The notes under the pieces were generated by a model, which saw only the letters and a list, made by a program, of their open reading frames with translations, made no database searches and was not told where the DNA came from. Shown one piece after another: positions 10,182 through 42,794 of a stretch of DNA of 53,105 bases. How positions within the stretch are numbered: position 1 is the first letter of the stretch; each line of letters starts with the position of its first letter. A program made the translations under genes and the position numbers. The stretch is from a virus: IMG/VR virus record IMGVR_UViG_3300028837_001657, positions 1-53,105 of that record. One strand, written 5' to 3'.

Positions 10182-11024
10182 ATGGCGCAATTCTTAAAAC
10201 AGTCCACGGCAGCGACTATCTTGGTCGGTCCCGCCCTCGACAAAGATGACGGCGTTACTCCCGAAACCGGCCTGACCGCAGGCGCGGTAGACGAGATAGT
10301 TGTGTACAAGCACGACGCTACCAGTGCGACCGACATTTCAGGAACGACCACGCTCACCCATCGGGCTGGCGGGAATTACACTGCCACATTGAGTGCGTCG
10401 GATACTGGAACGTTAGGCCGGCTGACTACCTTCGTTCGCGACGACGATGTGTGCTTGCCAATCTGGAAAGAATTCATGGTCGTCCCGGCCAACGTCTATG
10501 ATTCCTTGTTCGGCGCCGATGCGCTTCAGGTCCATGCCAACGAGATCACGGCGGGCCTGATCACTGCGGCCGCCATCGCGACCGGGGCGATTGACGCGGA
10601 CGCCATCGCCGGGGATGCGATCACAGCCGCGAAGATCGCGGCCGGCGCCATCGGCGCGGCGGAGCTCGCGGACGCTGCCATTGACGCGGCGACGCTGGCC
10701 GCGGACATGGATACCTACCAAGCCAAGCTATGGCTGTTCGATGATGATTCAGGAGCGAATGATCGCTACGTGGCCGTATGGTTCCAAAACGGGGAACCAG
10801 TGACCAGCGGGATCACGAGCCCGCAGATCCAGGTGATCAAGGTCGCGGATGGAACGGATCTTGTCGGAGCAACTGCCATGACGCAGATTGGTGCTCTCGG
10901 CATGTATCGCTACGATGAAGGCACCAATCGCATCGTGAGCGGCGCCGCCTACATCGCCAAGGTCACGGCGACGATAGGCGGAAGCGGCCGCACCTGGTAT
11001 CAGCCCGTAGGGAGGGATAGTTGA
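10182..11024 (+). CDS. Tail-fibre or baseplate-type protein with AITAAKI repeats
   Basis: The 280-residue protein has an N-terminal domain of about 105 residues (beta, with GGNYTATLSA). It is followed by a striking Ala/Ile/Asp heptad-like repeat region (about 125-175) of the form AITAAKIAAGAIG. That motif is a standard trimeric stalk of phage tail fibres. A C-terminal beta domain closes it. The end overlaps the start of the giant repeat protein (TTGA), so the two may be co-assembled. Confidence 0.65.
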   Translation: MAQFLKQSTAATILVGPALDKDDGVTPETGLTAGAVDEIVVYKHDATSATDISGTTTLTHRAGGNYTATLSASDTGTLGRLTTFVRDDDVCLPIWKEFMVVPANVYDSLFGADALQVHANEITAGLITAAAIATGAIDADAIAGDAITAAKIAAGAIGAAELADAAIDAATLAADMDTYQAKLWLFDDDSGANDRYVAVWFQNGEPVTSGITSPQIQVIKVADGTDLVGATAMTQIGALGMYRYDEGTNRIVSGAAYIAKVTATIGGSGRTWYQPVGRDS

Positions 11025-13591
11025 GCCTGCGCTTTCACCGAGGCGGCCTATACGAGCCATTCGACGATGATGCCCGCGCTGAATTCCTGAGCGAGCATCA
11101 TGACGTCAGCCTGGCGGGAGCATTGTCGCTGGCGGGCACCGTTACACGTCAAGTCACAACGGTCCTCGTTGGTGCGTTGACTTCTGCTAGTGCACTGATC
11201 AGCCAGGCGAGCAAAGCCCTCACTGGCGCGATCGCGCCCGCAGGCGCGGCAGCACGCACGATCGGCACGGTCCTGACCGGAGGGATCACGCCTGCCGGCG
11301 CAGTAGTTCGCACCGTGACCTATCCCCTTTCAGGCGCAGTCACTTCCGCTGGGGCACTCAGCAGGCAAGCACAGCGAGCACTCGCTGGCACCGTCACTTC
11401 CGCTGGTACACTCATCGGTCAAGCGCAGAAGGTTTTTGCAGGGGCGATCACTCCGGCCGGAGTGTTGACTCGCACCTTATCACTGGTGCGCCAACAGGCA
11501 GGCGCGATTACTCTGGCAGGTGCCCTTGCTCGCACGACTACTACGGCTCTCACTGGGGCGATCACTCCTGCAGGTGTGTTAGCCCGGGCGATCAGTGTGA
11601 CTTTTACAGGAGTGATCACGCCTGCTGGGGTGCTGATCAGGACGATCAGCACAACCGTTGCTGGCACAGTTACCTCTACCGGTGTATTGGTCAGCCAGGC
11701 GCAAAAGGTCCTTGCTGGCACAATCACACCTGCTGGTGAGTTAGCTCGCGTACTGTCACTGATACGTCAATATGCAGGTGCGATCACCCCGACTGGCGCT
11801 CTCATTCGCACGACCAGCAGAACCCTTGCAGGAACGATCACACCTGCAGGCGTGTTAGGCCGTGTGATCAGTATGGTGCTCACGGCCGCAGTCACCCCAG
11901 CAGGTGCCTTGAGCCGAACGACTACTACGGTCCTCACGGGCACGATCACACTTGCTGGCACGCTCGTCAATCAGGCACAGAAGGCCTTCGCTGGCACACT
12001 CACACCGGCCGGTGCACTGGCGCGCACTTTGTCACTGGTGCGCCAATATGCAGGCGCGGTCACCTTTGTGGGCACGCTCTTGCGCACAGTGACCCATCCT
12101 CTCGCGAGTACGGTCACTTTCGCAGGCGTGCTCATCAGGCAAGTACAGCAGACACTCGTCGGAGTGATCACGCCCACCGGTGCACTCGTCGGCCAGGCGC
12201 AGAAAGTTCTTGTCGGAGCGATCACGCCTGCAGGTGCACTCATCGGCCAGGCACAAAAGGCCCTCGCCGGAACGGTCACACTAGCAGGTGCTTTAGAGTC
12301 GGGATTCATTCGTGTGTTGACCGGGGCAGTCACCTTCGCAGGCACATTAACTCGCACGACTGCTACAGCCGTCACAGGAACGATCGCGCCGGCAGGGGTG
12401 CTGGCCCGCACGATTAGCACGGCACTCACAGGGGCGACTACTCCAGTGGGAGTATTGATCCGCACGGTCGGCACGACACTCATAGGGGAGATCACTCCTG
12501 CTGGCGTCTTGCAATCGACGCTTGTTCTGGTACGGGCACTGACTGGGACACTCACGTTTGCAGGCGTGCTTGTCCACACAACTAGCACGACACTCGCCGG
12601 CGTGATTAGTCCGTCTGGTGTTTTGGTACGATCGGTGACGACAGCACTGACCGGCACGGTCACACCTGCCGGAGCCATGATCATGACGTTAGCCCGCGTA
12701 CTGGCGGGCACGATCACGCCAGCAGGTGTGATTGCATCAAGCGTTTTGCTATTCAAGGCGCTGGCCGGGGCGATCACGCCGGCGGGCGTGTTAGTCATAG
12801 AGGTGGGCAAGGTGTTCGCTGGCACTGTCACTTTTGCCAGCATATTGACACGCACGACCAGCACGATCTTCGCGGGGACGATCACACCGGCAGGAGACCT
12901 CTTGCGATCGGTAGCAACTTCGCTGGCAGGCACAACTACCCCCGCCGGCGCATTGATCGGGCAAGCGCAAAAGGTGTTCACGGCAACGATCACACCAGCA
13001 GGGGTGTTAGGTCGCGTGATTGGCAAGACCTTGTCAGGAATGATCACCTCCACTGGCGTGCTCATTCGCACAACTAACACCATTCTTGCAGGAACAGTTA
13101 CTCCGGCTGGCGTCTTGCAATCGGCAATGGTCATAGTCCGAGAACTGACCGGGGCAGTCACTTTCGCGAGTGCACTGATTCGCACGACTACCCATGCCGT
13201 AGCCGGGACGATCACACCGACAGGAACACTCATCCAAGAGATTCAGCGTGCGTTGGTAGGGGTCTTGACCTCTACAGGTGTCCTCACCAGCACACAAACG
13301 ATGTTCAAGGCACTGGTCGGGGCGATCACTTTGACCGGGGCAGTGACCAGGCAGACCACTCACGTCTTGGCTGGGGTTTTGGCGCCCATCGGTGCGCTCG
13401 GTCGGGCTATCCGCAAAGCGTTGGCAGGCGCGCTCACGTTCATCGGTGACCTGGTGCAGAGCGAGCCCGTTCCCATCGAAGCGGATCTACGGGTGCGGAT
13501 GACGCCTGCCTTAGATTTGGCTACCCGCATCACACCGGCGACTTCATTGGCGCTGCGTTTCGCCGTCACTGCTGACTTGGAGGTGACATGA
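11021..13591 (+). CDS. Giant 18-residue-repeat fibre protein
   Basis: TTG 11021 is taken as start: GGAGGG precedes it and it overlaps the previous TGA. After an N-terminal segment of about 27 residues, about 44 copies of an 18-residue repeat run to about residue 815. The consensus is LAGTITPAGVLIRTISTT, with variants carrying QAQKA at the end. The conserved Gly-x-(I/V/L)-T-x-A-G core suggests a beta-solenoid or long fibre. The last 40 residues are unrelated. Neighbouring fibre genes point to an appendage, and variation among the repeats could tune receptor contact. The overlapping antisense frame of 420 codons is an artefact of the repeat. Confidence 0.65.
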   Translation: MSLRFHRGGLYEPFDDDARAEFLSEHHDVSLAGALSLAGTVTRQVTTVLVGALTSASALISQASKALTGAIAPAGAAARTIGTVLTGGITPAGAVVRTVTYPLSGAVTSAGALSRQAQRALAGTVTSAGTLIGQAQKVFAGAITPAGVLTRTLSLVRQQAGAITLAGALARTTTTALTGAITPAGVLARAISVTFTGVITPAGVLIRTISTTVAGTVTSTGVLVSQAQKVLAGTITPAGELARVLSLIRQYAGAITPTGALIRTTSRTLAGTITPAGVLGRVISMVLTAAVTPAGALSRTTTTVLTGTITLAGTLVNQAQKAFAGTLTPAGALARTLSLVRQYAGAVTFVGTLLRTVTHPLASTVTFAGVLIRQVQQTLVGVITPTGALVGQAQKVLVGAITPAGALIGQAQKALAGTVTLAGALESGFIRVLTGAVTFAGTLTRTTATAVTGTIAPAGVLARTISTALTGATTPVGVLIRTVGTTLIGEITPAGVLQSTLVLVRALTGTLTFAGVLVHTTSTTLAGVISPSGVLVRSVTTALTGTVTPAGAMIMTLARVLAGTITPAGVIASSVLLFKALAGAITPAGVLVIEVGKVFAGTVTFASILTRTTSTIFAGTITPAGDLLRSVATSLAGTTTPAGALIGQAQKVFTATITPAGVLGRVIGKTLSGMITSTGVLIRTTNTILAGTVTPAGVLQSAMVIVRELTGAVTFASALIRTTTHAVAGTITPTGTLIQEIQRALVGVLTSTGVLTSTQTMFKALVGAITLTGAVTRQTTHVLAGVLAPIGALGRAIRKALAGALTFIGDLVQSEPVPIEADLRVRMTPALDLATRITPATSLALRFAVTADLEVT
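11150..13460 (+). repeat. 54-bp tandem repeat array, degenerate
   Basis: The coding array of about 44 units has a 54-bp period with strong constraint on the Ala-Gly core codons and strong third-position drift. Units are mostly separable into two subclasses: one ends in Arg-Thr-x-Ser/Thr, the other in Gln-Ala-Gln-Lys. The subclasses occur in short alternating blocks, suggesting duplication of multi-unit segments. Confidence 0.75.
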
Positions 13592-29399: not shown

Positions 29400-29599
29400 T
29401 GACAGCCGTGCTGCATAGAGCAGCCTATGGGATAGGTGTCCTCGGGGGCACACTGATCGGAACGGGGTTAGCGTTTATTCCGTTTCTTTCTACCCACTTA
29501 GTGATCGGATTGCTACTCACAGTTGCGAGCTACTGCACTTCGGTCATCACTTGTGCAATTGACGTGCCTGAGCGTGAAACAGACAGGAGGATAGCATGA
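29372..29599 (+). CDS. Probable holin, two-segment membrane protein
   Basis: I choose ATG 29372 within the end of the spike gene; a GTG at 29399 is an alternative. The 75-residue product has two hydrophobic segments (GIGVLGGTLIGTGLAFIPFL and LVIGLLLTVASYCTSVI) and a short charged end. Its position just before the lysin and its size suit a holin, but the fold is not specific. It overlaps the lysin start by four bases (ATGA). Confidence 0.6.
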   Translation: MDAAVLTRVVTAVLHRAAYGIGVLGGTLIGTGLAFIPFLSTHLVIGLLLTVASYCTSVITCAIDVPERETDRRIA

Positions 29600-32500
29600 G
29601 CACTATAACCGTCGTAGTTAAGCCAAGTGCACCGCAAGTCGGAGGGGCGTTGAGTGTCGTCGCCAAAAGCGCCGATGCCTTGACCAACGTCAAACTCAAT
29701 GTGCACGATCCGACCGGTGCCCTTGTCGGGCGCACGGCCGTCACTGTCGGGCGAGACGGCAGTGATTACATGTGGAGTTGGACAACTGACCCACTTGCCT
29801 TGCAAGGAGACCACGTCGTGGCCGTGACCACCTCGGCAACTAACGCCACAGTGACGGTGATGGTTGGAGATCCACAGGCAACTATCCACAGCAAGCTCGG
29901 CCCGCACATCATCAAAGACGAGCACGCGGGGTACTTGCTGGCTGGCCCGGCAGTAGCAAAGTATGTTGGAGAGTGGGGGAGTGCAGTGCACTACGCACTC
30001 GCTAATACCTTAGTCATTGGGCGTCTCCACAGTGAGGCCTATGATGCACAGTGGCATGTTGCACAAGGCATGTCACCTCAGCAAGCGGCAGAAATGTTCG
30101 TGCCTGATCAACTCGGCACCTACATGTCCAATGAGCACATTCTCTACTGGGAGGGGCACAATGAGCCAATCTGGAACACAGCAGAAGAGATGGCCTGGTA
30201 CGCGGAGTTTGAGATAGCACGCATGCAACTGATGGCAAACATCGGCTTGCGCTGCGTGATCGGTAACTTTGCCACCGGAACACCGGCCTTGTCACTGTGG
30301 CCTGCATTCTTACCGGCGATTGAAGCGGGATTAGAACACAAGGCTATTCTTGGCCTGCATGAGTACAGTTGCCCATGGATGTGGTGGATGACGGGCAGTT
30401 ATCAACTAGATCCGGCAGACGATCAAGGAGACGAGGGGTGGACGACGTTGCGCTACCGAAAGGCTTACAGGCAACATCTGATTCCCGCTGGCCTCGGTCA
30501 TATTCCCTTGGCGATCACAGAGGCCGGGATCGACTCGTTAGTCAGGCCACTTCCGCCTGGAGCACCTGGGGCGGCCTGGAGCGATCTGGGGGATTACTGG
30601 CGAGACCACGACAGAGAACCAGATGCGGCAGATTACTATTTCCAACAGTTGGTGTGGTATGATCAAGAACTGCAAAACGATGAGTATGTAGTAGGTGCGA
30701 CAGTTTTTTGCTTCGGCAACTACGGGGCGCCTTGGTCTGCCTTCGACGTGGCGGGCACAGCAGTTGCCGACAAGCTGACCGCCTATGCACAGGCGTACCC
30801 GGGCAAACCGTTTGTGTATCCTACCGACAAAGTGTCAGGGCGTGGCGATCCTCGCACGCCTTACAAGCGTACTTATGTCCTCTTACCTCCCGGTGCCGAC
30901 AAAGACTGGGCAGTGGCAGCCATCGAGGGCAGTTGGAGACAAGGGCAGACGGTCGGCGGAAGCGCCGACGATGCGGGGATCGGGGACTTGCCCGACAAGA
31001 CCGCCCGCGTCATCAATCCGGCTGAATGGACCAACGGAGACATCGCAAATTTCTACGGGACGCACTACCCGAACACGGGCATCGAGCCTTTAGTGGCGAA
31101 CACGCCTGCAGAACTCAAGGCGGCACTACAAGGCCAAGCGACTGCGGAGTATCCTTGGCACAGGGATGTCACGGCCGCACTGCCACAACGGACTGACTAT
31201 GAGGCATGGTCGGGAACGTCACTAGAAAATGGATGGGGAACGCGCACCCTTGCAGAGATCGACGACATCTGCATCCATCATACGGCAGGACTGGCAGAGG
31301 CCATCGGAGCTGATGTCGGGGCCAGTGATTTCTATAACCTGGTGCACTGGTACGTGTGGAGCAAAACGTGGACATCAGACCTTCACACCTACACCGGCCA
31401 TCCCTCCGGACCTTACAGCATCGTGATCGACACCGTAGGAACCGTGCTTCTGGCAAACGACCTGACGGTAGCGTGCTGGCACAACCAACGTGGGGCAAGC
31501 CTGTCCTTGTCCATTGGTCTTTTGTGTGATGCAGTGAATGGTCTGCCCACGGAGGCCCAACTTGACGCCTTGGCCGGCGTGTGCGTCTGGGCGATCCAAT
31601 CGGATGTACTGCCAACCATTACCTCTATCGACCAGATCACAGGACACCTCGACTGGTTTGCGACAGAGTGCCCCGGCTGGACGGACAGTGCGGGCCACGA
31701 CCGGTGGAAAAGGGCGTTGCTCGAAAAGATCAGTGTGCAACTCGGAGAACCTTTGCCAGGGAATGGACCAACGCCAACTACAGCATCTCCGGTCTTAGGT
31801 ATTCACGACTGGCCGGGCAATGCGGAAGGCGGTTCGGCTATTCGCTGGCTGGCTGATCAAGGTTTGGCGGGTACGGTCTACGTGCCGCTCTACGTGGGCA
31901 CAGGTGTGAGCGGGTTGAACTTGCAAGGCTATGCTGATCAGGGCTTCAAGATTTACTACAACTTGAGATTCTCGTACTCAACTGACAAGGGAGGTGCGGG
32001 GACGTTGCCGCCGGAGAACGAGCTTGACGACTTCGTGGAGGCGTGCCTGGGGACGATGCGCGCCAGCACGGGCATCGCGGGCTACGCCATTGGGAATGAG
32101 TGGAACAACCCGAGGGAATCGCCGAAGAACTTTGACCTCAGCCCGACTTACGTGGCTGCTGTCTACAACGAAATCTGGCGACGGAAGCCGGAGGGCGCCC
32201 GCGTGAGCCTGGGGGCCGTTGATCCGTTCTTCGGGCCGGGGAGTGACTGTGGCTGGTGGTTTGACGAGGTGATGAAACAGGTCGAAGGGATGGACTTCAT
32301 CGACCTGCACGGGTACGTCAGGGGGCCGAACGCCGGCCTGGTGTGGTCAATGGAGATGTTTGGGGATGATCCCTTGCGCTGGCAGTACCTCAACTACTTT
32401 GGCTGCGTCGAGACGATGCTTCGGAGATTACCTGCACGCTTCCACGATCTGCCCGTGATCGTGAGCGAGTTCAACCACTTGTGGAAAACCAGCGAAGAGG

Positions 32501-32700
32501 TTGGGGACCTGGGGTGGGTAGACGACGAAAGGGCGACGGCAGTGCTGCACAATGCTATCGCCCGTGCCTTGGAGTGGAACGAGGCCGGCGGGCATAACCC
32601 GATCGAGGCAGTGATCGCTTACCGCTGGTCAGGCGACGAATGGGCTATAGATGGACGGGGAACCATCAAAGCATACCTGGCCGACCTGCTCCGCGAGTGA
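29596..32700 (+). CDS. Multidomain endolysin: two clan-A glycosidase modules around an amidase
   Basis: The 1,034-residue protein starts after AGGAGG. Residues 1-95 look like an Ig-type domain. About 95-420 resemble a TIM-barrel (clan A) glycosidase: WEGHNEP near 188 as possible acid/base, LAITEAG near 304 as nucleophile strand. After a linker, an N-acetylmuramoyl-L-alanine amidase (Amidase_2) spans about 545-720, with IDDICIHHTAG near 558 and HLDWFATECPGW near 684 giving zinc ligands. A second barrel (about 730-1034) has IGNEWNNPRE near 832 and VIVSEFN near 953. Linkage to a holin-like gene supports lysis, but a virion role is possible. Confidence 0.7.
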   Translation: MSTITVVVKPSAPQVGGALSVVAKSADALTNVKLNVHDPTGALVGRTAVTVGRDGSDYMWSWTTDPLALQGDHVVAVTTSATNATVTVMVGDPQATIHSKLGPHIIKDEHAGYLLAGPAVAKYVGEWGSAVHYALANTLVIGRLHSEAYDAQWHVAQGMSPQQAAEMFVPDQLGTYMSNEHILYWEGHNEPIWNTAEEMAWYAEFEIARMQLMANIGLRCVIGNFATGTPALSLWPAFLPAIEAGLEHKAILGLHEYSCPWMWWMTGSYQLDPADDQGDEGWTTLRYRKAYRQHLIPAGLGHIPLAITEAGIDSLVRPLPPGAPGAAWSDLGDYWRDHDREPDAADYYFQQLVWYDQELQNDEYVVGATVFCFGNYGAPWSAFDVAGTAVADKLTAYAQAYPGKPFVYPTDKVSGRGDPRTPYKRTYVLLPPGADKDWAVAAIEGSWRQGQTVGGSADDAGIGDLPDKTARVINPAEWTNGDIANFYGTHYPNTGIEPLVANTPAELKAALQGQATAEYPWHRDVTAALPQRTDYEAWSGTSLENGWGTRTLAEIDDICIHHTAGLAEAIGADVGASDFYNLVHWYVWSKTWTSDLHTYTGHPSGPYSIVIDTVGTVLLANDLTVACWHNQRGASLSLSIGLLCDAVNGLPTEAQLDALAGVCVWAIQSDVLPTITSIDQITGHLDWFATECPGWTDSAGHDRWKRALLEKISVQLGEPLPGNGPTPTTASPVLGIHDWPGNAEGGSAIRWLADQGLAGTVYVPLYVGTGVSGLNLQGYADQGFKIYYNLRFSYSTDKGGAGTLPPENELDDFVEACLGTMRASTGIAGYAIGNEWNNPRESPKNFDLSPTYVAAVYNEIWRRKPEGARVSLGAVDPFFGPGSDCGWWFDEVMKQVEGMDFIDLHGYVRGPNAGLVWSMEMFGDDPLRWQYLNYFGCVETMLRRLPARFHDLPVIVSEFNHLWKTSEEVGDLGWVDDERATAVLHNAIARALEWNEAGGHNPIEAVIAYRWSGDEWAIDGRGTIKAYLADLLRE

Positions 32701-32705
32701 CAAAC

Positions 32706-32738
32706 AAAAAAAAGCCCCCGCCTCGAGGCGAGGGGCTT
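32706..32738 (-). terminator. Strong rho-independent terminator for the left operon
   Basis: On the minus strand, GAGGC pairs into a GC-rich stem (AAGCCCC.. / ..GGGGCTT, one bulged base, 13 paired) followed by eight Ts. On the plus strand it is followed by no T-run, so it mainly ends leftward transcription. It separates the convergent tail/lysis and left operons, which end only 80 bp apart. Confidence 0.85.
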
Positions 32739-32779: not shown

Positions 32780-33391
32780 TTACCCGTTCTCGTCCCTGGC
32801 AACTTGGAACATGCCCTTGTTGCCACTCTTCTCAGGTCTCCAGTCACCGATGCCCACATGGAACCCAGCGATTTCCAGTAGTCGGGCAATGTCGTCAGCG
32901 GAGATGACTGTGGGGTTGAATAGTACGTCGAACGTGATTGACCATGGGGGCGAGAATTCCGCACGATAACGCAGGTCGGCCACACCACGCCCGATCACGA
33001 CCACGTCTTCGCGCATGTGAGGCTCGCTGTCTTCGATGGGCAACACGCCGCCCAAGACGTAGAACGCTCCGCGTGCGCTGGTCATGGTCATGTCAGGAAC
33101 AAAGCGGCAGGCCCCCACACAGGCGGCCTTGATTCCGTCCGCGATGAATCCCGGCCGACCGTCTTCGGTCATATACATTGAAGCCTTGTACTCTATTTCC
33201 GGAGTGCGTACCGGTCGTCCTACAGTCGTGTCCTTCTTCTGCTGCTTATCCCGTATCCTCTTGATCTTGTCAGGATCAAACCTGTTGCAGAGCAACGGAC
33301 TTAACCCTGTGATCGTGATCGTCATCCGTTCTTTCTGGATCTGCGGGATCATCACTGTCTTTGCTACTGGTGTTCCTTTTGCTTTTGTCAT
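32780..33391 (-). CDS. Conserved phage protein with VGIGDWRPEKSG motif, downstream of a pentanucleotide array
   Basis: ATG 33391 follows ACAGGAGAC. The 203-residue protein has a recognisable pattern from phage genomes of uncertain function: ITGLSPLLCNRFD near 27, a helix with GRPGFIADGIKAACVGACRF (about 77-96), MTSARGAFYVLG, MREDVVVIGRGVADLRYRAEF (about 124-144), and C-terminal LLEIAGFHVGIGDWRPEKSG (about 168-187). The glycine-rich end is weakly reminiscent of Cas7/RAMP-fold loops, an inference only. As the promoter-distal gene of the left operon it is preceded by a 480-bp pentamer array. Confidence 0.65.
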   Translation of the reverse strand: MTKAKGTPVAKTVMIPQIQKERMTITITGLSPLLCNRFDPDKIKRIRDKQQKKDTTVGRPVRTPEIEYKASMYMTEDGRPGFIADGIKAACVGACRFVPDMTMTSARGAFYVLGGVLPIEDSEPHMREDVVVIGRGVADLRYRAEFSPPWSITFDVLFNPTVISADDIARLLEIAGFHVGIGDWRPEKSGNKGMFQVARDENG

Positions 33392-33426: not shown

Positions 33427-33905
33427 CGCCTTACCTTGCCTAACCCTGCCACACCGCACTGTGCCGGACCCAGCCTTGCCTTGTCACGCCTGGCCCTACC
33501 GAGCCGCGTCTGATAATGACGGTCCGCGCCTTGCCGTGCCTAGACCCGCCCAGCCCTGCCTAACCACGCCGTGCCTCGGCACTGTGTCAGATGAAGGCGG
33601 TCCTCGCCTTGCCAGGTCACGCCTTGCCGTGCCCTGCCCGGCCTAGCGATACCTAGCCGTGTCAGATAATGGCGATCCGCGCCTTGCCTTACCTTACCAG
33701 GCCGCACCATACCATACCCCGCTCTGCCAAGCCACGACAATTCGCCTCGCCTTGCCTCGCCAGGCCTTACCTCACCACGCCCTGCCCGACCCTGCCAAAC
33801 CCTACCCTTCCGTGCAGTGCCATGCCGCGTCAGATGATAGCAGGCCTCACCTTGCCTTGCCTCACCTCGCTGGGCCTAACCGCACCATGCCATGCAATGC
33901 CATGC
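33427..33905. repeat. Degenerate pentanucleotide repeat array with embedded 25-bp element
   Basis: About 480 bp of degenerate 5-mers (GCCTT, GCCGT, GCCTA, ACCTT on the plus strand, i.e. AAGGC type on the transcribed strand) fill the only large gap in the left operon. At 33506, 33583, 33658 and 33825 the pattern is broken by a related element of about 25 bp, core GTCAGATAATGGCGATCCGC. The array is open in several frames, so ORF predictions here (such as a plus-strand frame at 33419) are artefacts. It lies between the stop of one gene and the start of the next. Confidence 0.85.
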
Positions 33906-33909
33906 CGCG

Positions 33910-34389
33910 TCAATCTGCAATCATGTCAATCGCTGCGATCACCGCAGCAAATTCTTCGTAGGTGGCATACTTCTTGCGCCAAGCAAGCAATTGCCGATGG
34001 GCATCTTCAAGAACCTGCGCGCGCAAGGCATCTTCATTCATAGCTTTGGCGACGAGGACATAAGCCTTCACAGGCTCATCGTCTGCACGTTTCAAGGTGA
34101 CGTGCTGGAAAGCCCGCACGGTCACGACTTCACTGCAGTCCGCGGCCGTCACCACGACGTGGATTGATCGGAGAATGTAACTGGCTTGCTCAAGCCGCCA
34201 TTTCTCCGCTGCCGTTTCGTCGTCCCACTCAAACCCGTCATGCAATGGAGATCGCTTTGATCGCGCATCTTTGACGACTTGAGCAGGAGTAATGCTGCCG
34301 TCACTGCGCACGATCAGACGCGTGATGCGGTCTCCATACTTTTGTGCTTGTTTTCGCGTTAGTGTCGATCCGTCGGCAGGTATGTACAA
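33910..34389 (-). CDS. Conserved phage hypothetical protein, 159 residues
   Basis: ATG 34389 is preceded by AAAGGAGATGC. The protein has RKQAQKYGDRITRLI near residue 12, then ITPAQVVKDARSKRSPLHDGFEWDDETAA near 33 and a C-terminal helical region with RQLLAWRKKYATYEEFAAVIAAI. This combination is a familiar phage orphan family adjacent to recombination genes; role unknown. The gene ends where the pentamer array starts. Confidence 0.6.
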   Translation of the reverse strand: MYIPADGSTLTRKQAQKYGDRITRLIVRSDGSITPAQVVKDARSKRSPLHDGFEWDDETAAEKWRLEQASYILRSIHVVVTAADCSEVVTVRAFQHVTLKRADDEPVKAYVLVAKAMNEDALRAQVLEDAHRQLLAWRKKYATYEEFAAVIAAIDMIAD

Positions 34390-34401: not shown

Positions 34402-34593
34402 TTACTCGACGAAGGCGAGTAACGCTGCTGCGCGCCTTATCAGAAGATCCACAGTTGCCTCCGCCCATTTCTCGAACGTGGGGGGGGGGCTTTCAGTAAG
34501 CTGCTCGCGAAGCTGCTCCGCTTCGTTCGTGGGAACGGTGAGCAACACGCGCCATCTCTTCTTGTTCCATCTGCACTCTTGTAGTGCTTTCAC
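34402..34593 (-). CDS. Small hypothetical protein, 63 residues
   Basis: ATG 34593 overlaps the stop of the proteasome-like gene by four bases, suggesting coupling. The product is helical with a Trp/Lys-rich start (RWNKKRWRVLLTVPTNEAEQ). Its middle contains a run of C on the minus strand (34485-34492) coding PPP. No function is assigned. Confidence 0.45.
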   Translation of the reverse strand: MKALQECRWNKKRWRVLLTVPTNEAEQLREQLTESPPPTFEKWAEATVDLLIRRAAALLAFVE

Positions 34594-35138
34594 ATCGACA
34601 TGACATAGTACGGTCCATGTACGCCGCTGCTGAATTGTCCCGCGATGTGCAACGCCTCTAGGATACGCTCCTTAGGCGGTAAGTCACACTCGTCGTCCAG
34701 GGCAGCCATCGCCCCGAGAGCATACTCGCGCCCGCATCCAATAGCTGCTAGGCCCCCTCGATCATTGTAGGCTGTGACCTGGAAGTCATCGTGGATGTGG
34801 TACGCCTGGCTGCGATAGCCTGCCAAGAAAAACCCGCCTTCTTCGCGATTGTCCTCAACCTTTGTGAACCCGCCTTCCTTCAAGCACGTGCGGACAGCAG
34901 GGATAAAAGTGGCGACGAGATAGGCATGATCCTTCACGCCGTCTACGTGCTCAGGGATGGTCAAGTCAAACCGGAGCAGTTGCGCCATCCGGATGCTTCC
35001 TGTACAGCCGAGTAAGAAAGGGCCGTTGCGGAATACTTTTGTCGCCGCCATCTGCCGGATGCTCCAACCTGAGAGGACAGCGGAATCGCTACCCATCCAT
35101 ACCTTGCCACTGTCGGGCAGGGCAATGATGCAAGTCAT
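34590..35138 (-). CDS. Proteasome beta/HslV-like Ntn hydrolase
   Basis: The 182-residue protein looks like a self-compartmentalising Ntn hydrolase: MTCIIALPDSGKVWMGSDSA at the N-terminus puts a Thr at position 2 as candidate nucleophile after Met removal, with an Asp-Ser pattern near 17. The remaining fold segments (GGFFLAGYRSQAYHIHDDFQV near 102 and GCGREYALGAMAALD near 135) are also family-like. Phage versions of this family are known. The substrate is unknown; it may process or degrade host proteins. It lies between the ATPase gene upstream and small genes downstream. Confidence 0.65.
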   Translation of the reverse strand: MTCIIALPDSGKVWMGSDSAVLSGWSIRQMAATKVFRNGPFLLGCTGSIRMAQLLRFDLTIPEHVDGVKDHAYLVATFIPAVRTCLKEGGFTKVEDNREEGGFFLAGYRSQAYHIHDDFQVTAYNDRGGLAAIGCGREYALGAMAALDDECDLPPKERILEALHIAGQFSSGVHGPYYVMSM

Positions 35139-36232
35139 CGTGAATTCCTCTGAACAAGTTCAGTCGTTCTAAGCGCCGCATTTAACACAGTCAAGAGCGG
35201 AGCGTCGAATCTTGTCCTCTTCCCTTCTGCGTACACAAAGAACTCTCCGGAGGCCAGCCGCTCTGCGGCTGTACTGAACGTAACCTCACTGAGGTCGCAG
35301 GCATTCTGCGCATCCGGTGTTTTACCAAGGATGCGCACAAGGAACCCCCAAGCCGAAAAGAGCCCGACGCATGGAGGTTTTCTTTCTACCGTGGCGACGA
35401 CGTGCACTCCTACAGCAGGGCCGTGCGTCGTGATATACGAAAAGATAGGCGCCAGGTTGCCAGACTGCTCGAAAACGTCTTCGAGGCCGTCCACGATAAA
35501 CAGCAAGGTAACAAAGGCATCGGGCTGGGGTTTCATTTCACGCTCTATGACAAGACGGGCTACCGCGCGCACCGATCTTTCTACCTTGCAAGCATGCACA
35601 TCAACAGGTGCGGTCATAAGGTGCGGGACGGAATCTGACCAGCCCCACTCTTCTCGCGGCGCGATGATCAACATGCGCAACGCAGCCGGCGATTCGCTCA
35701 ATGCAAGAGACATCACCAGGCAGCGCAGTAGATTTGTCTTTCCGGCTCCGGCCTCTCCACTGATCAGAACGTTCTTGACATCCTCAGAGGGCAGCCGCAC
35801 TAAAAGCGGCGTCCCGTCTTCAGCCAACCCGATCATCCCTGTAAGACGCGGGGGCCTTCTTGCCTGCCTTGGGGGATTTAGCAGAGCAGCAGCAAGATGA
35901 GGGAGCCCTGGCAGTGTGATCACATCATCGTACTGGTACAACTGCTCGTACAACTGCCCGAACTGTAAAGGTGCCACGTTGACGCGGAGAGCCACGACTG
36001 CCACTCTTGCGCCCCGCCGCTCTACGCGACATTCCATCCTTAGCGCGCTCGTTAGCGTGTCAATCAACGCAGGAGTAATAAGGATGGTGTCTCCGCTGAG
36101 ACGAGGGAATACGTCGAAGCGCACCCACCTGTGTGTTCTCTGCCCTCCTGAAATTCTTACACGGATGCCCTGACTTGCGAAAGCGGTCTCTACCCTGTCT
36201 GCTTGAAACTCCAACTCTGTTCTGATAGTCAT
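35135..36232 (-). CDS. FtsK/HerA-type P-loop ATPase
   Basis: The 365-residue protein has a Walker A motif GEAGAGKT at residues 159-166, an inferred Walker B hhhhD in LLFIVDGLED near 243-252, and the order of elements of FtsK/SpoIIIE/HerA motor proteins (VKNVLISGEAGAGKTNLLRCLV, THGPAVGVHVVATVER). The 150-residue N-terminal region looks like a DNA-associated adaptor. Start ATG 36232 shares the ATGA junction with the preceding small gene, and its stop overlaps the Ntn hydrolase start. It may move DNA at packaging or segregation, or form a nuclease-coupled motor. Confidence 0.6.
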   Translation of the reverse strand: MTIRTELEFQADRVETAFASQGIRVRISGGQRTHRWVRFDVFPRLSGDTILITPALIDTLTSALRMECRVERRGARVAVVALRVNVAPLQFGQLYEQLYQYDDVITLPGLPHLAAALLNPPRQARRPPRLTGMIGLAEDGTPLLVRLPSEDVKNVLISGEAGAGKTNLLRCLVMSLALSESPAALRMLIIAPREEWGWSDSVPHLMTAPVDVHACKVERSVRAVARLVIEREMKPQPDAFVTLLFIVDGLEDVFEQSGNLAPIFSYITTHGPAVGVHVVATVERKPPCVGLFSAWGFLVRILGKTPDAQNACDLSEVTFSTAAERLASGEFFVYAEGKRTRFDAPLLTVLNAALRTTELVQRNSR

Positions 36233-41411: not shown

Positions 41412-42794
41412 TTACCAAACATCTTCCGTCAACCGCGTCGGCTTCGGCGGTACCGGGACGTGTACGTTAGTCGGATCAGGATCACTGTCCGCCACTCTGC
41501 AAACGCACCAGCCGTTCGTGTTGAGCCAGGTGATTGCGTCTCGTCCCATGTCTCGCAACCGGCCGACACGATCAGTACCGATGGGGCCAAGTTCGGCCTC
41601 TCTCAGTCGTGTTAACAAAGCGTCGCGCCCTTCTCGCGGGTTCAAGCTGGCTGCCAGCATACTGGCTCCTAGCTGGTCCCCTGTAAAAGGTTTGCGGCCA
41701 CCGTTGGCCGGGAGATCTTGCCCTATGTCTTCTGCCTCAAACTCCGGCCAACGCTGAAAGCGCCAGCTATAGCCGTTGCTCGCTTTGTCGAAATCTGTTC
41801 GGTCGACCCAGGCAACCTGGACGCGATGGAAGCAGCCCGGCCCGATTGCATAGCCGTCGCCTGAACCGCCCAAAAAGTCTGCCCTCGGCCAACTGGCACT
41901 CCCGGTCACCACGCGTGACGCAGCGTGATCAACGACCTGCAGGGCGATCCTCCCCGTCAAGTTGCGCGGAACAGAAGGGTCACCGAATGCCTTTGTGGTG
42001 GGGTGTTGTGTCGTGATAAACACGTGCACCCCACGACTTCGCCCTTGTGCGGCTAATAGGCGCAGCATGTCAGCGATGGCGCTATCTTGGATGATTTCTT
42101 GGATTTCATCTACGGCCACGATCAGCCGGCCGCTCCAGCTATTACTCTCTCCCCGCTGCCGCATCACTTGGACAGCGTAGGCCAGTGCTCCCCGGATGTC
42201 GGGACCTTCCGTCGCCACTGGGCCAAGCACGCCTGGCAAATGCTGCAGCAGACGCAAGGATTCACCTTGCTTTCCGTCGACCAAGATCAACTCATTGTCG
42301 GGGTCCTGGCAGAGTTGGAACAAGATGAGTTGAAGCGCCTTGCTCTTCCCGCTGCCGGAGGTGCCTGCCAGTAAGAAGTGAGGGGTCCTGTCGGATAGCC
42401 CCCCTATCACCACTGGACCCGTTTCGGCCTCACCGATAATGAACTGGCCTTTGCCGGGCTTACGCTCGTCCAGGTCAGTCAGGCGGATCATCGTCCGTGC
42501 CCATTCGCGCGGCCAAGCGCACTCGCATCGAATGAAGCGATCTGTCATGTAGATCAACGGTCTGTCTACCGTCCAAGGCACGAATGGGCGCAGAGCTGCA
42601 CAGTTGTACCGTTTCAGCGCACTGATCAATATGCCTGCTCCCAGGCCTGCGGGATGCAGCAATAAGACACCCGCCCTCGGGCCATCTATCAGGTATACCT
42701 TCTTGATAGGGCAGCTAACTTTGGTGAACTGGCCTTCACCTGCGGCGCGGGCCAGATTTACTGCCCACTCTTCTAACAGCTTAAGCTTGTCCAT
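41412..42794 (-). CDS. FtsK/SpoIIIE-type DNA translocase-like ATPase
   Basis: The 460-residue protein carries Walker A GTSGSGKS at 144-151 and Walker B RLIVAVDEIQE with VDE at 228-230. The adjacent segment (AQGRSRGVHVFITTQHPTTKAFG) is the family signature. After residue about 380 a region with LLTRLREAELGPIGTDRVGRLRDMGRDAITWL suggests a winged helix, like the FtsK gamma domain. ATG 42794 follows ACAGGAGACC. Such motors are known from conjugative and phage elements and would pump DNA. It neighbours a membrane/HTH-like protein. Confidence 0.75.
   Translation of the reverse strand: MDKLKLLEEWAVNLARAAGEGQFTKVSCPIKKVYLIDGPRAGVLLLHPAGLGAGILISALKRYNCAALRPFVPWTVDRPLIYMTDRFIRCECAWPREWARTMIRLTDLDERKPGKGQFIIGEAETGPVVIGGLSDRTPHFLLAGTSGSGKSKALQLILFQLCQDPDNELILVDGKQGESLRLLQHLPGVLGPVATEGPDIRGALAYAVQVMRQRGESNSWSGRLIVAVDEIQEIIQDSAIADMLRLLAAQGRSRGVHVFITTQHPTTKAFGDPSVPRNLTGRIALQVVDHAASRVVTGSASWPRADFLGGSGDGYAIGPGCFHRVQVAWVDRTDFDKASNGYSWRFQRWPEFEAEDIGQDLPANGGRKPFTGDQLGASMLAASLNPREGRDALLTRLREAELGPIGTDRVGRLRDMGRDAITWLNTNGWCVCRVADSDPDPTNVHVPVPPKPTRLTEDVW

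What the first reader, a model, noticed from the sequence alone, without database searches (positions are those of the whole stretch)
33427..33905. 480-bp pentanucleotide array with four embedded 25-bp elements before a conserved phage gene
The region reads as degenerate AAGGC-type pentamers on the transcribed strand and is interrupted four times by a related GTCAGATAATGGCGATCCGC element. It is non-coding, precedes the 33391 gene and follows the 33910 gene. It could be a replication origin, a binding array for the downstream protein, or a structured RNA leader. The two-level structure (pentamers plus elements) is unusual.
Basis: partly seen in the sequence, partly recalled or inferred. Interest (0 to 1): 0.72.

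Follow-up and report, generated by a model that had tools for sequence, protein, structure and literature searches.

The report
Phage VIPR guide-RNA array
A virus of microbes carries a newly recognised kind of RNA-guided system, a relative of CRISPR, whose guide RNAs are written as five-letter repeats; such systems are thought to let one phage switch off the genes of its rivals.

Summary
Window 33427-33905, read on the minus strand, is a tract of YNNGG pentamers (lag-5 identity 0.53; dinucleotide shuffles 0.29 +- 0.02). A 15-nt in-register element recurs four times (plus one degenerate copy), well above shuffles. The gene downstream, 32780-33391, is a homologue of the experimentally studied Vipr protein of phage SUSP1 (profile E 5e-11 to PDB 36pp) and is predicted to have the Cas7/Csm3 RAMP fold (Z 12.3). 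The gene upstream, 33910-34389, is its regular partner. So this is a VIPR system: vap, a six-unit vrRNA array and vipr on one strand. VIPR was described in a 2026 preprint (PMC13142463, main text read): the NN dinucleotides of GGY/NN repeats guide the protein to DNA by a 1-nt-skip code. Of 136 loci with such arrays here, 117 have at least two 4-nt CAGG unit boundaries; the window has none and uses the 15-nt element instead. I found no convincing target (five of six guides searched in IMG/VR). Membership is well supported; RNA guiding and rival-phage targets are inferred for this virus.

The parts
32780..33391 (-). vipr: RAMP (Cas7/Csm3-fold) protein, 203 aa, phrog_4652
33427..33905 (-). vrRNA array of YNNGG (GGY/NN) repeats, six units: A, B1, B2, C, D, E
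33845..33904 (-). unit A, 12 pentamers; NN = AT AT AT AT GC TA CC GA GA AA AA GA
   Evidence: sequence; coordinates
33830..33844 (-). element 1 (CCTGCTATCATCTGA)
33745..33824 (-). unit B1, 16 pentamers; NN = AT AC AC AG AG TT AG CG AG GT GA AA CT GA AA GA
33732..33744 (-). degenerate element between B1 and B2 (CGAATTGTCGTGG)
33677..33731 (-). unit B2, 11 pentamers; NN = TT AG GG AT AT GC CT AA AA AA GC
33662..33676 (-). element 2 (ATCGCCATTATCTGA)
33602..33656 (-). unit C, 11 pentamers; NN = TA AT TA CG AG AC AA GT CT AA GA
33587..33601 (-). element 3 (ACCGCCTTCATCTGA)
33524..33573 (-). unit D, 10 pentamers; NN = AC GT TA AG TG GG TA AC AA GC
33509..33523 (-). element 4 (ACCGTCATTATCAGA)
33429..33503 (-). 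unit E, 15 pentamers, runs into the vipr leader without an element; NN = TC AG CA GT AA AA TG CC AC GC GT AG TA AA AA
33910..34389 (-). candidate vap: 159 aa, phrog_15946; weak winged-helix-like resemblance in the model
32715..32734 (-). terminator-like hairpin plus T run just past vipr (possible end of the transcription unit)
   Evidence: consensus match only; 4 found against a shuffle mean of 3.1

Best explanation
It is a VIPR system (Viral Interference Programmable Repeat). The minus-strand unit vap - array - vipr would be transcribed together and the array processed into six guide RNAs (vrRNAs), each a tract of 10-16 YNNGG repeats; five of the six are followed by a tail-like element (four clear, one degenerate). 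The GGY parts would be held by a filament of Vipr, one RAMP subunit per repeat, while the exposed NN dinucleotides together pair with double-stranded DNA reading NN-x-NN-x (one base skipped). The complex would block transcription of genes of competing phages or prophages. Shown here: the repeat code, the unit structure, the homology of the protein to SUSP1 Vipr, its predicted RAMP fold, and the regular company of vipr, array and vap. Inferred from the published SUSP1 work: RNA processing, binding, skip rule, repression; one subunit per repeat is my inference. Unknown: the targets.
For: Period 5 and GGY/NN grammar. Profile of 46 relatives finds one distinct PDB sequence, SUSP1 Vipr (36pp), E 5.2e-11 over 172 profile positions; the window protein alone finds it at 4.6e-5. 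AlphaFold2 model pLDDT 82.7; all 50 listed Foldseek rows are CRISPR effector structures, 83 matches in all at E <= 1e-3; VIA Z 12.3, 153 residues, 3.5 A, to a subunit of the E. italicus Csm complex. Arrays on the vipr strand in 55 of 80 viral and 53 of 60 genomic loci, on the other strand in 2 of 80 and 0 of 60; vap-like gene in 75 of 80 and 52 of 60 (some loci are near-duplicates). In 50,697 phage records vipr-like proteins occur in 34 and vap-like in 33, and all 33 are among the 34. Blastn of the array alone hit 3 phage records (2 phages), all next to a vipr gene. Published grammar: GGY/NN, 9-16 repeats, 3' tail, vap gene (PMC13142463, main text).
Against: No target found: none of the six guides in the virus itself; guide C exact in viral contigs 0; cores of E, D, B1 and A gave 8, 18, 4 and 6 stretches, with flanking dinucleotides at or little above chance; the best of them, for guide A, lie in low-GC phages. 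B2 was not searched there. A small test of the skip rule with guides of relatives showed no convincing excess at skip 1, and a Streptomyces guide hit 0 of 295 genomes. The element has no consistent fold, and the closest protein relatives mostly use another unit boundary. No RNA data exist for this virus.
Confidence: 0.9

Rival explanations
1. A DNA-level binding array (iteron-like origin, partition or operator site) for the downstream or upstream protein.
For: Repeats lie next to a protein gene; the upstream protein is weakly winged-helix-like (Z 6.8); GC skew changes sign near 33 kb.
Against: Iterons repeat whole words (recalled); here two of five positions are free while GGY is kept. Array and vipr lie on the same strand in 108 of 140 loci against 2 of 140 on the other, and the array may lie before vipr, after it or after vap, as RNA would allow. 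The skew switch coincides with the switch of gene orientation. The downstream protein is RAMP-like.
Confidence: 0.04
2. A cis-acting structured leader that regulates the downstream gene, for example a TRAP-like repeated binding site (GAG repeats at about 5-nt spacing, recalled).
For: Spacing of 5 nt; lies directly upstream of vipr; whole array folds better than shuffles (z -2.2).
Against: In most relatives the array is downstream of vipr or of vap; no Rfam match; elements have no common fold; 75 pentamers in six units are more than a ring protein would need. Autoregulation besides guiding is not excluded.
Confidence: 0.04
3. A decayed VIPR array: the protein is intact but GG positions are eroding (for example CACTG, TATCG, CGTGA), so some units no longer work. 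(A sub-case of the best explanation, so its confidence overlaps with it.)
For: Several pentamers lack GG; one element is degenerate; no target found.
Against: All six units keep at least 10 pentamers, and relatives tolerate similar irregular pentamers.
Confidence: 0.15

Closest known systems
VIPR of Escherichia phage SUSP1 (type II; PMC13142463, PDB 36pp)
   Same: Homologous Vipr protein; YNNGG repeats with free NN, 9-16 per unit; conserved sequence after each repeat tract; several units in an array; viral genome; small partner gene.
   Different: Only distantly similar protein; the tail-like element here is 15 nt, in register and without a predicted common fold, whereas a pseudoknot is reported for SUSP1; whether the partner gene is one of the published vap1-6 could not be checked (supplement not open).
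VIPR-like loci of Gordonia, Mycobacterium and cyanobacterial phages (UmaThurman, ODay, Ecliptus, Donkeykong, Cy-LDV1), annotated there as hypothetical proteins
   Same: Same vipr and vap families (phrog_4652, phrog_15946), array beside vipr.
   Different: Units are separated by a 4-nt CAGG, not by a 15-nt element; gene order is vipr-array-vap or array-vipr-vap, here vap-array-vipr.
Class 1 CRISPR effectors (Csm3/Cas7)
   Same: RAMP fold.
   Different: No CRISPR repeat/spacer array or cas operon seen; guide is a gapped pentamer code.

Membership tests
VIPR | Vipr protein, a RAMP homologue | tested here: met
   Homology to SUSP1 Vipr; Csm3/Cas7-like model
VIPR | G-loop and thumb of the RAMP | not tested
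   Glycine-rich conserved stretch near residues 176-193 is suggestive only
VIPR | vrRNAs of 9-16 YNNGG repeats, GGY kept and NN variable | tested here: met
   units of 10-16 pentamers, NN entropy 3.5 of 4 bits
VIPR | Invariable 3' tail after the repeat tract, with conserved secondary structure | tested here: inconclusive
   A conserved element follows four of the six units, a degenerate one a fifth; no shared fold predicted
VIPR | Minimal locus with a vap gene, mostly viral | tested here: met
   phrog_15946 gene adjacent; window is a virus record. Identity with a published vap not testable
VIPR | Small RNAs expressed and bound by the protein | not testable with these tools
   No RNA data
VIPR | NN match DNA targets with 1-nt skip | tested here: inconclusive
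   No target found
VIPR subtype with hammerhead-interspersed array | Hammerhead ribozymes between units | tested here: not met
   No hammerhead match in Rfam at gathering or relaxed threshold
Class 1 CRISPR-Cas | CRISPR array and cas operon | tested here: not met
   No CRISPR family in the Rfam scan of the window; the four genes scanned gave no cas hit in PADLOC; repeats are pentamers. Other genes of the window were not scanned against PADLOC
Iteron replication origin | Identical tandem repeats next to an initiator gene (recalled definition) | tested here: not met
   Repeats are degenerate at NN; neighbour is a RAMP-like protein

The most novel reading that the evidence does not exclude
A VIPR variant whose guides are punctuated by a 15-nt element kept in register with the pentamers. 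The element would serve at once as 3' tail of one guide and 5' lead of the next, being a processing or capping site, in a clade whose other members separate guides by dropping one base (CAGG). It could be an intermediate between boundary-by-frameshift arrays and tailed guides.
Probability: 0.4. Interest if true: 0.62.

Novelty: new member of a known kind. Interest (0 to 1): 0.55.

Why it matters
VIPR is a very recently reported RNA-guided system thought to precede CRISPR. This locus adds a member with an unusual array in which unit boundaries can be read by eye, and the comparison shows that the phrog_4652/phrog_15946 pair, both listed as of unknown function, marks VIPR-like loci in mycobacteriophages and Gordonia phages that grow on laboratory hosts. 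That makes guide turnover, unit processing and targets testable in easy systems. The window also shows how a purely mechanical pentamer signal reveals such arrays.

Tried and rejected
Targets. Own virus, six guides, skips 0-3: none above shuffled guides in a convincing way. Viral contigs: guide C exact, 0; cores of E, D, B1, A: 8, 18, 4, 6 stretches, flanks at or little above chance; the best for guide A (two identical stretches in low-GC phages, ten consecutive dinucleotides matched, that is 20 of 24 positions of the 12-dinucleotide guide plus one half-match) was judged chance given the low-complexity guide and a GC content unlike the window's. Guide B2 was not searched there. Relatives: 131 nine-dinucleotide guides of 31 loci against 0.70 Mb of held loci, no excess at skip 1; 61 eight-dinucleotide guides of actinophages against 185 kb, best 15 of 16 at skip 1 (two overlapping windows, an Ecliptus guide in the ODay tape-measure gene), but a shuffled control reached 15 too at skip 0, so not claimed. 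One Streptomyces guide: 0 of 6 genomes reached by handle at up to 3 mismatches and 0 of 295 genomes of the genus at up to 2.

Element elsewhere. A strict element pattern in viral contigs gave one hit in an unrelated gene without an array, chance. Similar repeated inserts were sought in the held loci: only L147 had a long one, a different hairpin; five other loci had a single 11-nt pair. My first version of that scan was too strict to find even the window's own.

Other. Hairpin tail: no common fold. Sigma-70 promoter: none found. Partner protein: no PDB sequence relative worth trusting; Foldseek none at E <= 1e-3; winged-helix resemblance weak (Z 6.8). Pfam gave nothing for either window protein. 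Host of the virus not identified: the nearest portal relative is from an enrichment culture. Literature: full-text searches 'pentanucleotide repeat/bacteriophage/intergenic', 'VIPR/vrRNA', 'Cas7-like/phage/pentanucleotide', 'phage-encoded/RAMP/guide RNA/tandem repeat' found one paper on this, PMC13142463; its main text was read whole, its supplement was not open, so types, vap families and the supplementary figures were not seen.

Full report
Observation. On the minus strand, 33905 down to 33427 reads as YNNGG pentamers. Identity at lag 5 is 0.532 against 0.291 +- 0.019 for 1000 dinucleotide-preserving shuffles (maximum 0.352), with further peaks at every multiple of 5; the window has no second such place for period 5. 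The tract falls into units A, B1, B2, C, D and E of 12, 16, 11, 11, 10 and 15 pentamers, each ending in CAAGG plus one more pentamer (YRMGG). Four units are followed by a 15-nt element without GG (consensus near ACCGCCATTATCTGA), in register with the pentamers; B1 is followed by a degenerate version, and E runs into the leader of the next gene. The four elements are more alike than shuffles give (58 of 75 against 44.0 +- 1.6, maximum 49 in 150 shuffles). A half element overlaps the stop codon of the upstream gene. In 53 five-spaced repeats of the window, 15 of 16 possible NN dinucleotides occur (entropy 3.5 bits).

Neighbours. The window is a virus record of 53,105 bases. The gene downstream on the same strand, 32780-33391, belongs to phrog_4652, the gene upstream, 33910-34389, to phrog_15946, both of unknown function. 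A terminator-like hairpin follows the downstream gene (a consensus match only).

The link to VIPR. Blastn of the array alone against 50,697 phage records hit three records, of Gordonia phage ODay and Mycobacterium phage Donkeykong, each right beside a phrog_4652 gene. A literature search for pentanucleotide repeats then led to PMC13142463 (bioRxiv 2026, version 2; main text read whole), which reports VIPR: a RAMP protein plus vrRNAs of 9-16 YNNGG repeats and a 3' tail; NN dinucleotides recognise DNA with one base skipped; targets are competing phages and prophages. Independent of the paper's text, a profile of 46 relatives of the window protein finds exactly one distinct sequence in the PDB copy, 'SUSP1 Vipr protein' (36pp), E 5.2e-11, and the window protein alone finds it at 4.6e-5. 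The predicted structure (pLDDT 82.7) matches CRISPR RAMPs: 83 Foldseek matches at E <= 1e-3, and all 50 listed rows are CRISPR effector structures; VIA Z 12.3 over 153 residues to a subunit of a Csm complex, with Csm3 crystal structures at Z 12.1 and 11.5.

Comparison. From viral contigs 80 loci were taken (the best of 196 relatives) and from genome contigs 60. Strict YNNGG runs (6 of 8) lie on the vipr strand in 55 of 80 and 53 of 60, on the opposite strand in 2 of 80 and 0 of 60; a phrog_15946-like gene is present in 75 of 80 and 52 of 60. Some loci are near-duplicates, so these are not independent counts. At least one locus that fails the strict test has a more degenerate array (L040). In the phage records vipr-like proteins are in 34, vap-like in 33, all 33 among the 34; the one without is Pseudomonas phage LESphi2. 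The partner is 34-35% identical to the genes beside the Gordonia phages' vipr. [quoted passage not shown]

What is different here. In relatives the units are separated by a dropped base: GGCAGGY. With a looser array test, 117 of 136 loci with arrays have at least two such boundaries; the window has none (the 136 include the window and come from 149 sources). The window's 15-nt elements take that place. A search for repeated inserts in the same held loci found only one other case of a long insert, in L147 (Candidatus Sulfotelmatobacter), a hairpin of other sequence. The elements do not match hammerhead or any other Rfam family and have no shared fold. They resemble in position, not in sequence or predicted fold, the 3' tails described for SUSP1. 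Because the supplement of the paper could not be opened, I cannot say that this arrangement is unpublished, and I file it as a new member.

Mechanism. By homology and grammar, Vipr subunits would coat the RNA one per pentamer, holding GGY, and present NN for pairing with DNA at NN-x spacing. Repression of rival phage genes is inferred from the published SUSP1 and P. fulva systems. For this virus no step after the sequence has been shown. Target searches failed: see Tried and rejected. This is expected if the rivals of an uncultivated virus are not in the collections, but it is also what a decayed array would give.

Verdict. Observation confirmed; interpretation 'binding array for the downstream protein' is right in spirit but at RNA level and as guides. 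Confidence that this is a VIPR system 0.9; that it acts against other phages about 0.65; that the 15-nt element is a functional tail or processing site about 0.6.

Noticed in passing
L002 3140-3463; L003 1986-2372: UmaThurman gp40 and Donkeykong gp48, annotated as hypothetical proteins, are translations of the pentamer array and probably not genes.
   Followed up: partly
L188 10004-11221: In Mycobacterium phage Gorge one annotated ORF (gp54) spans both the vipr-like and vap-like stretches: a fusion or a sequencing frameshift.
   Followed up: no
L132 3965-5683: Two vipr-like genes in tandem with arrays after each in a Lachnospiraceae MAG.
   Followed up: no
L147 5000-5760: A VIPR-like array with a repeated hairpin insert (GATCTCCG...CGGAGATC).
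   Followed up: partly
window 11021-13591: 856-aa protein made of 18-residue repeats (GTITPAGVLxRT type, 54-bp period).
   Followed up: no
window 34590-35138: HslV-type peptidase-like gene (phrog_1040) upstream of the candidate vap.
   Followed up: no
window 35135-36232 and 41412-42794: Two FtsK/SpoIIIE-like ATPases in one phage.
   Followed up: no
window 34480-34489: Run of ten G inside a small ORF (34402-34593), a possible slippage site.
   Followed up: no
window 29596-32700: 1034-aa protein with an N-acetylmuramoyl-L-alanine amidase domain, likely an endolysin of unusual length.
   Followed up: no
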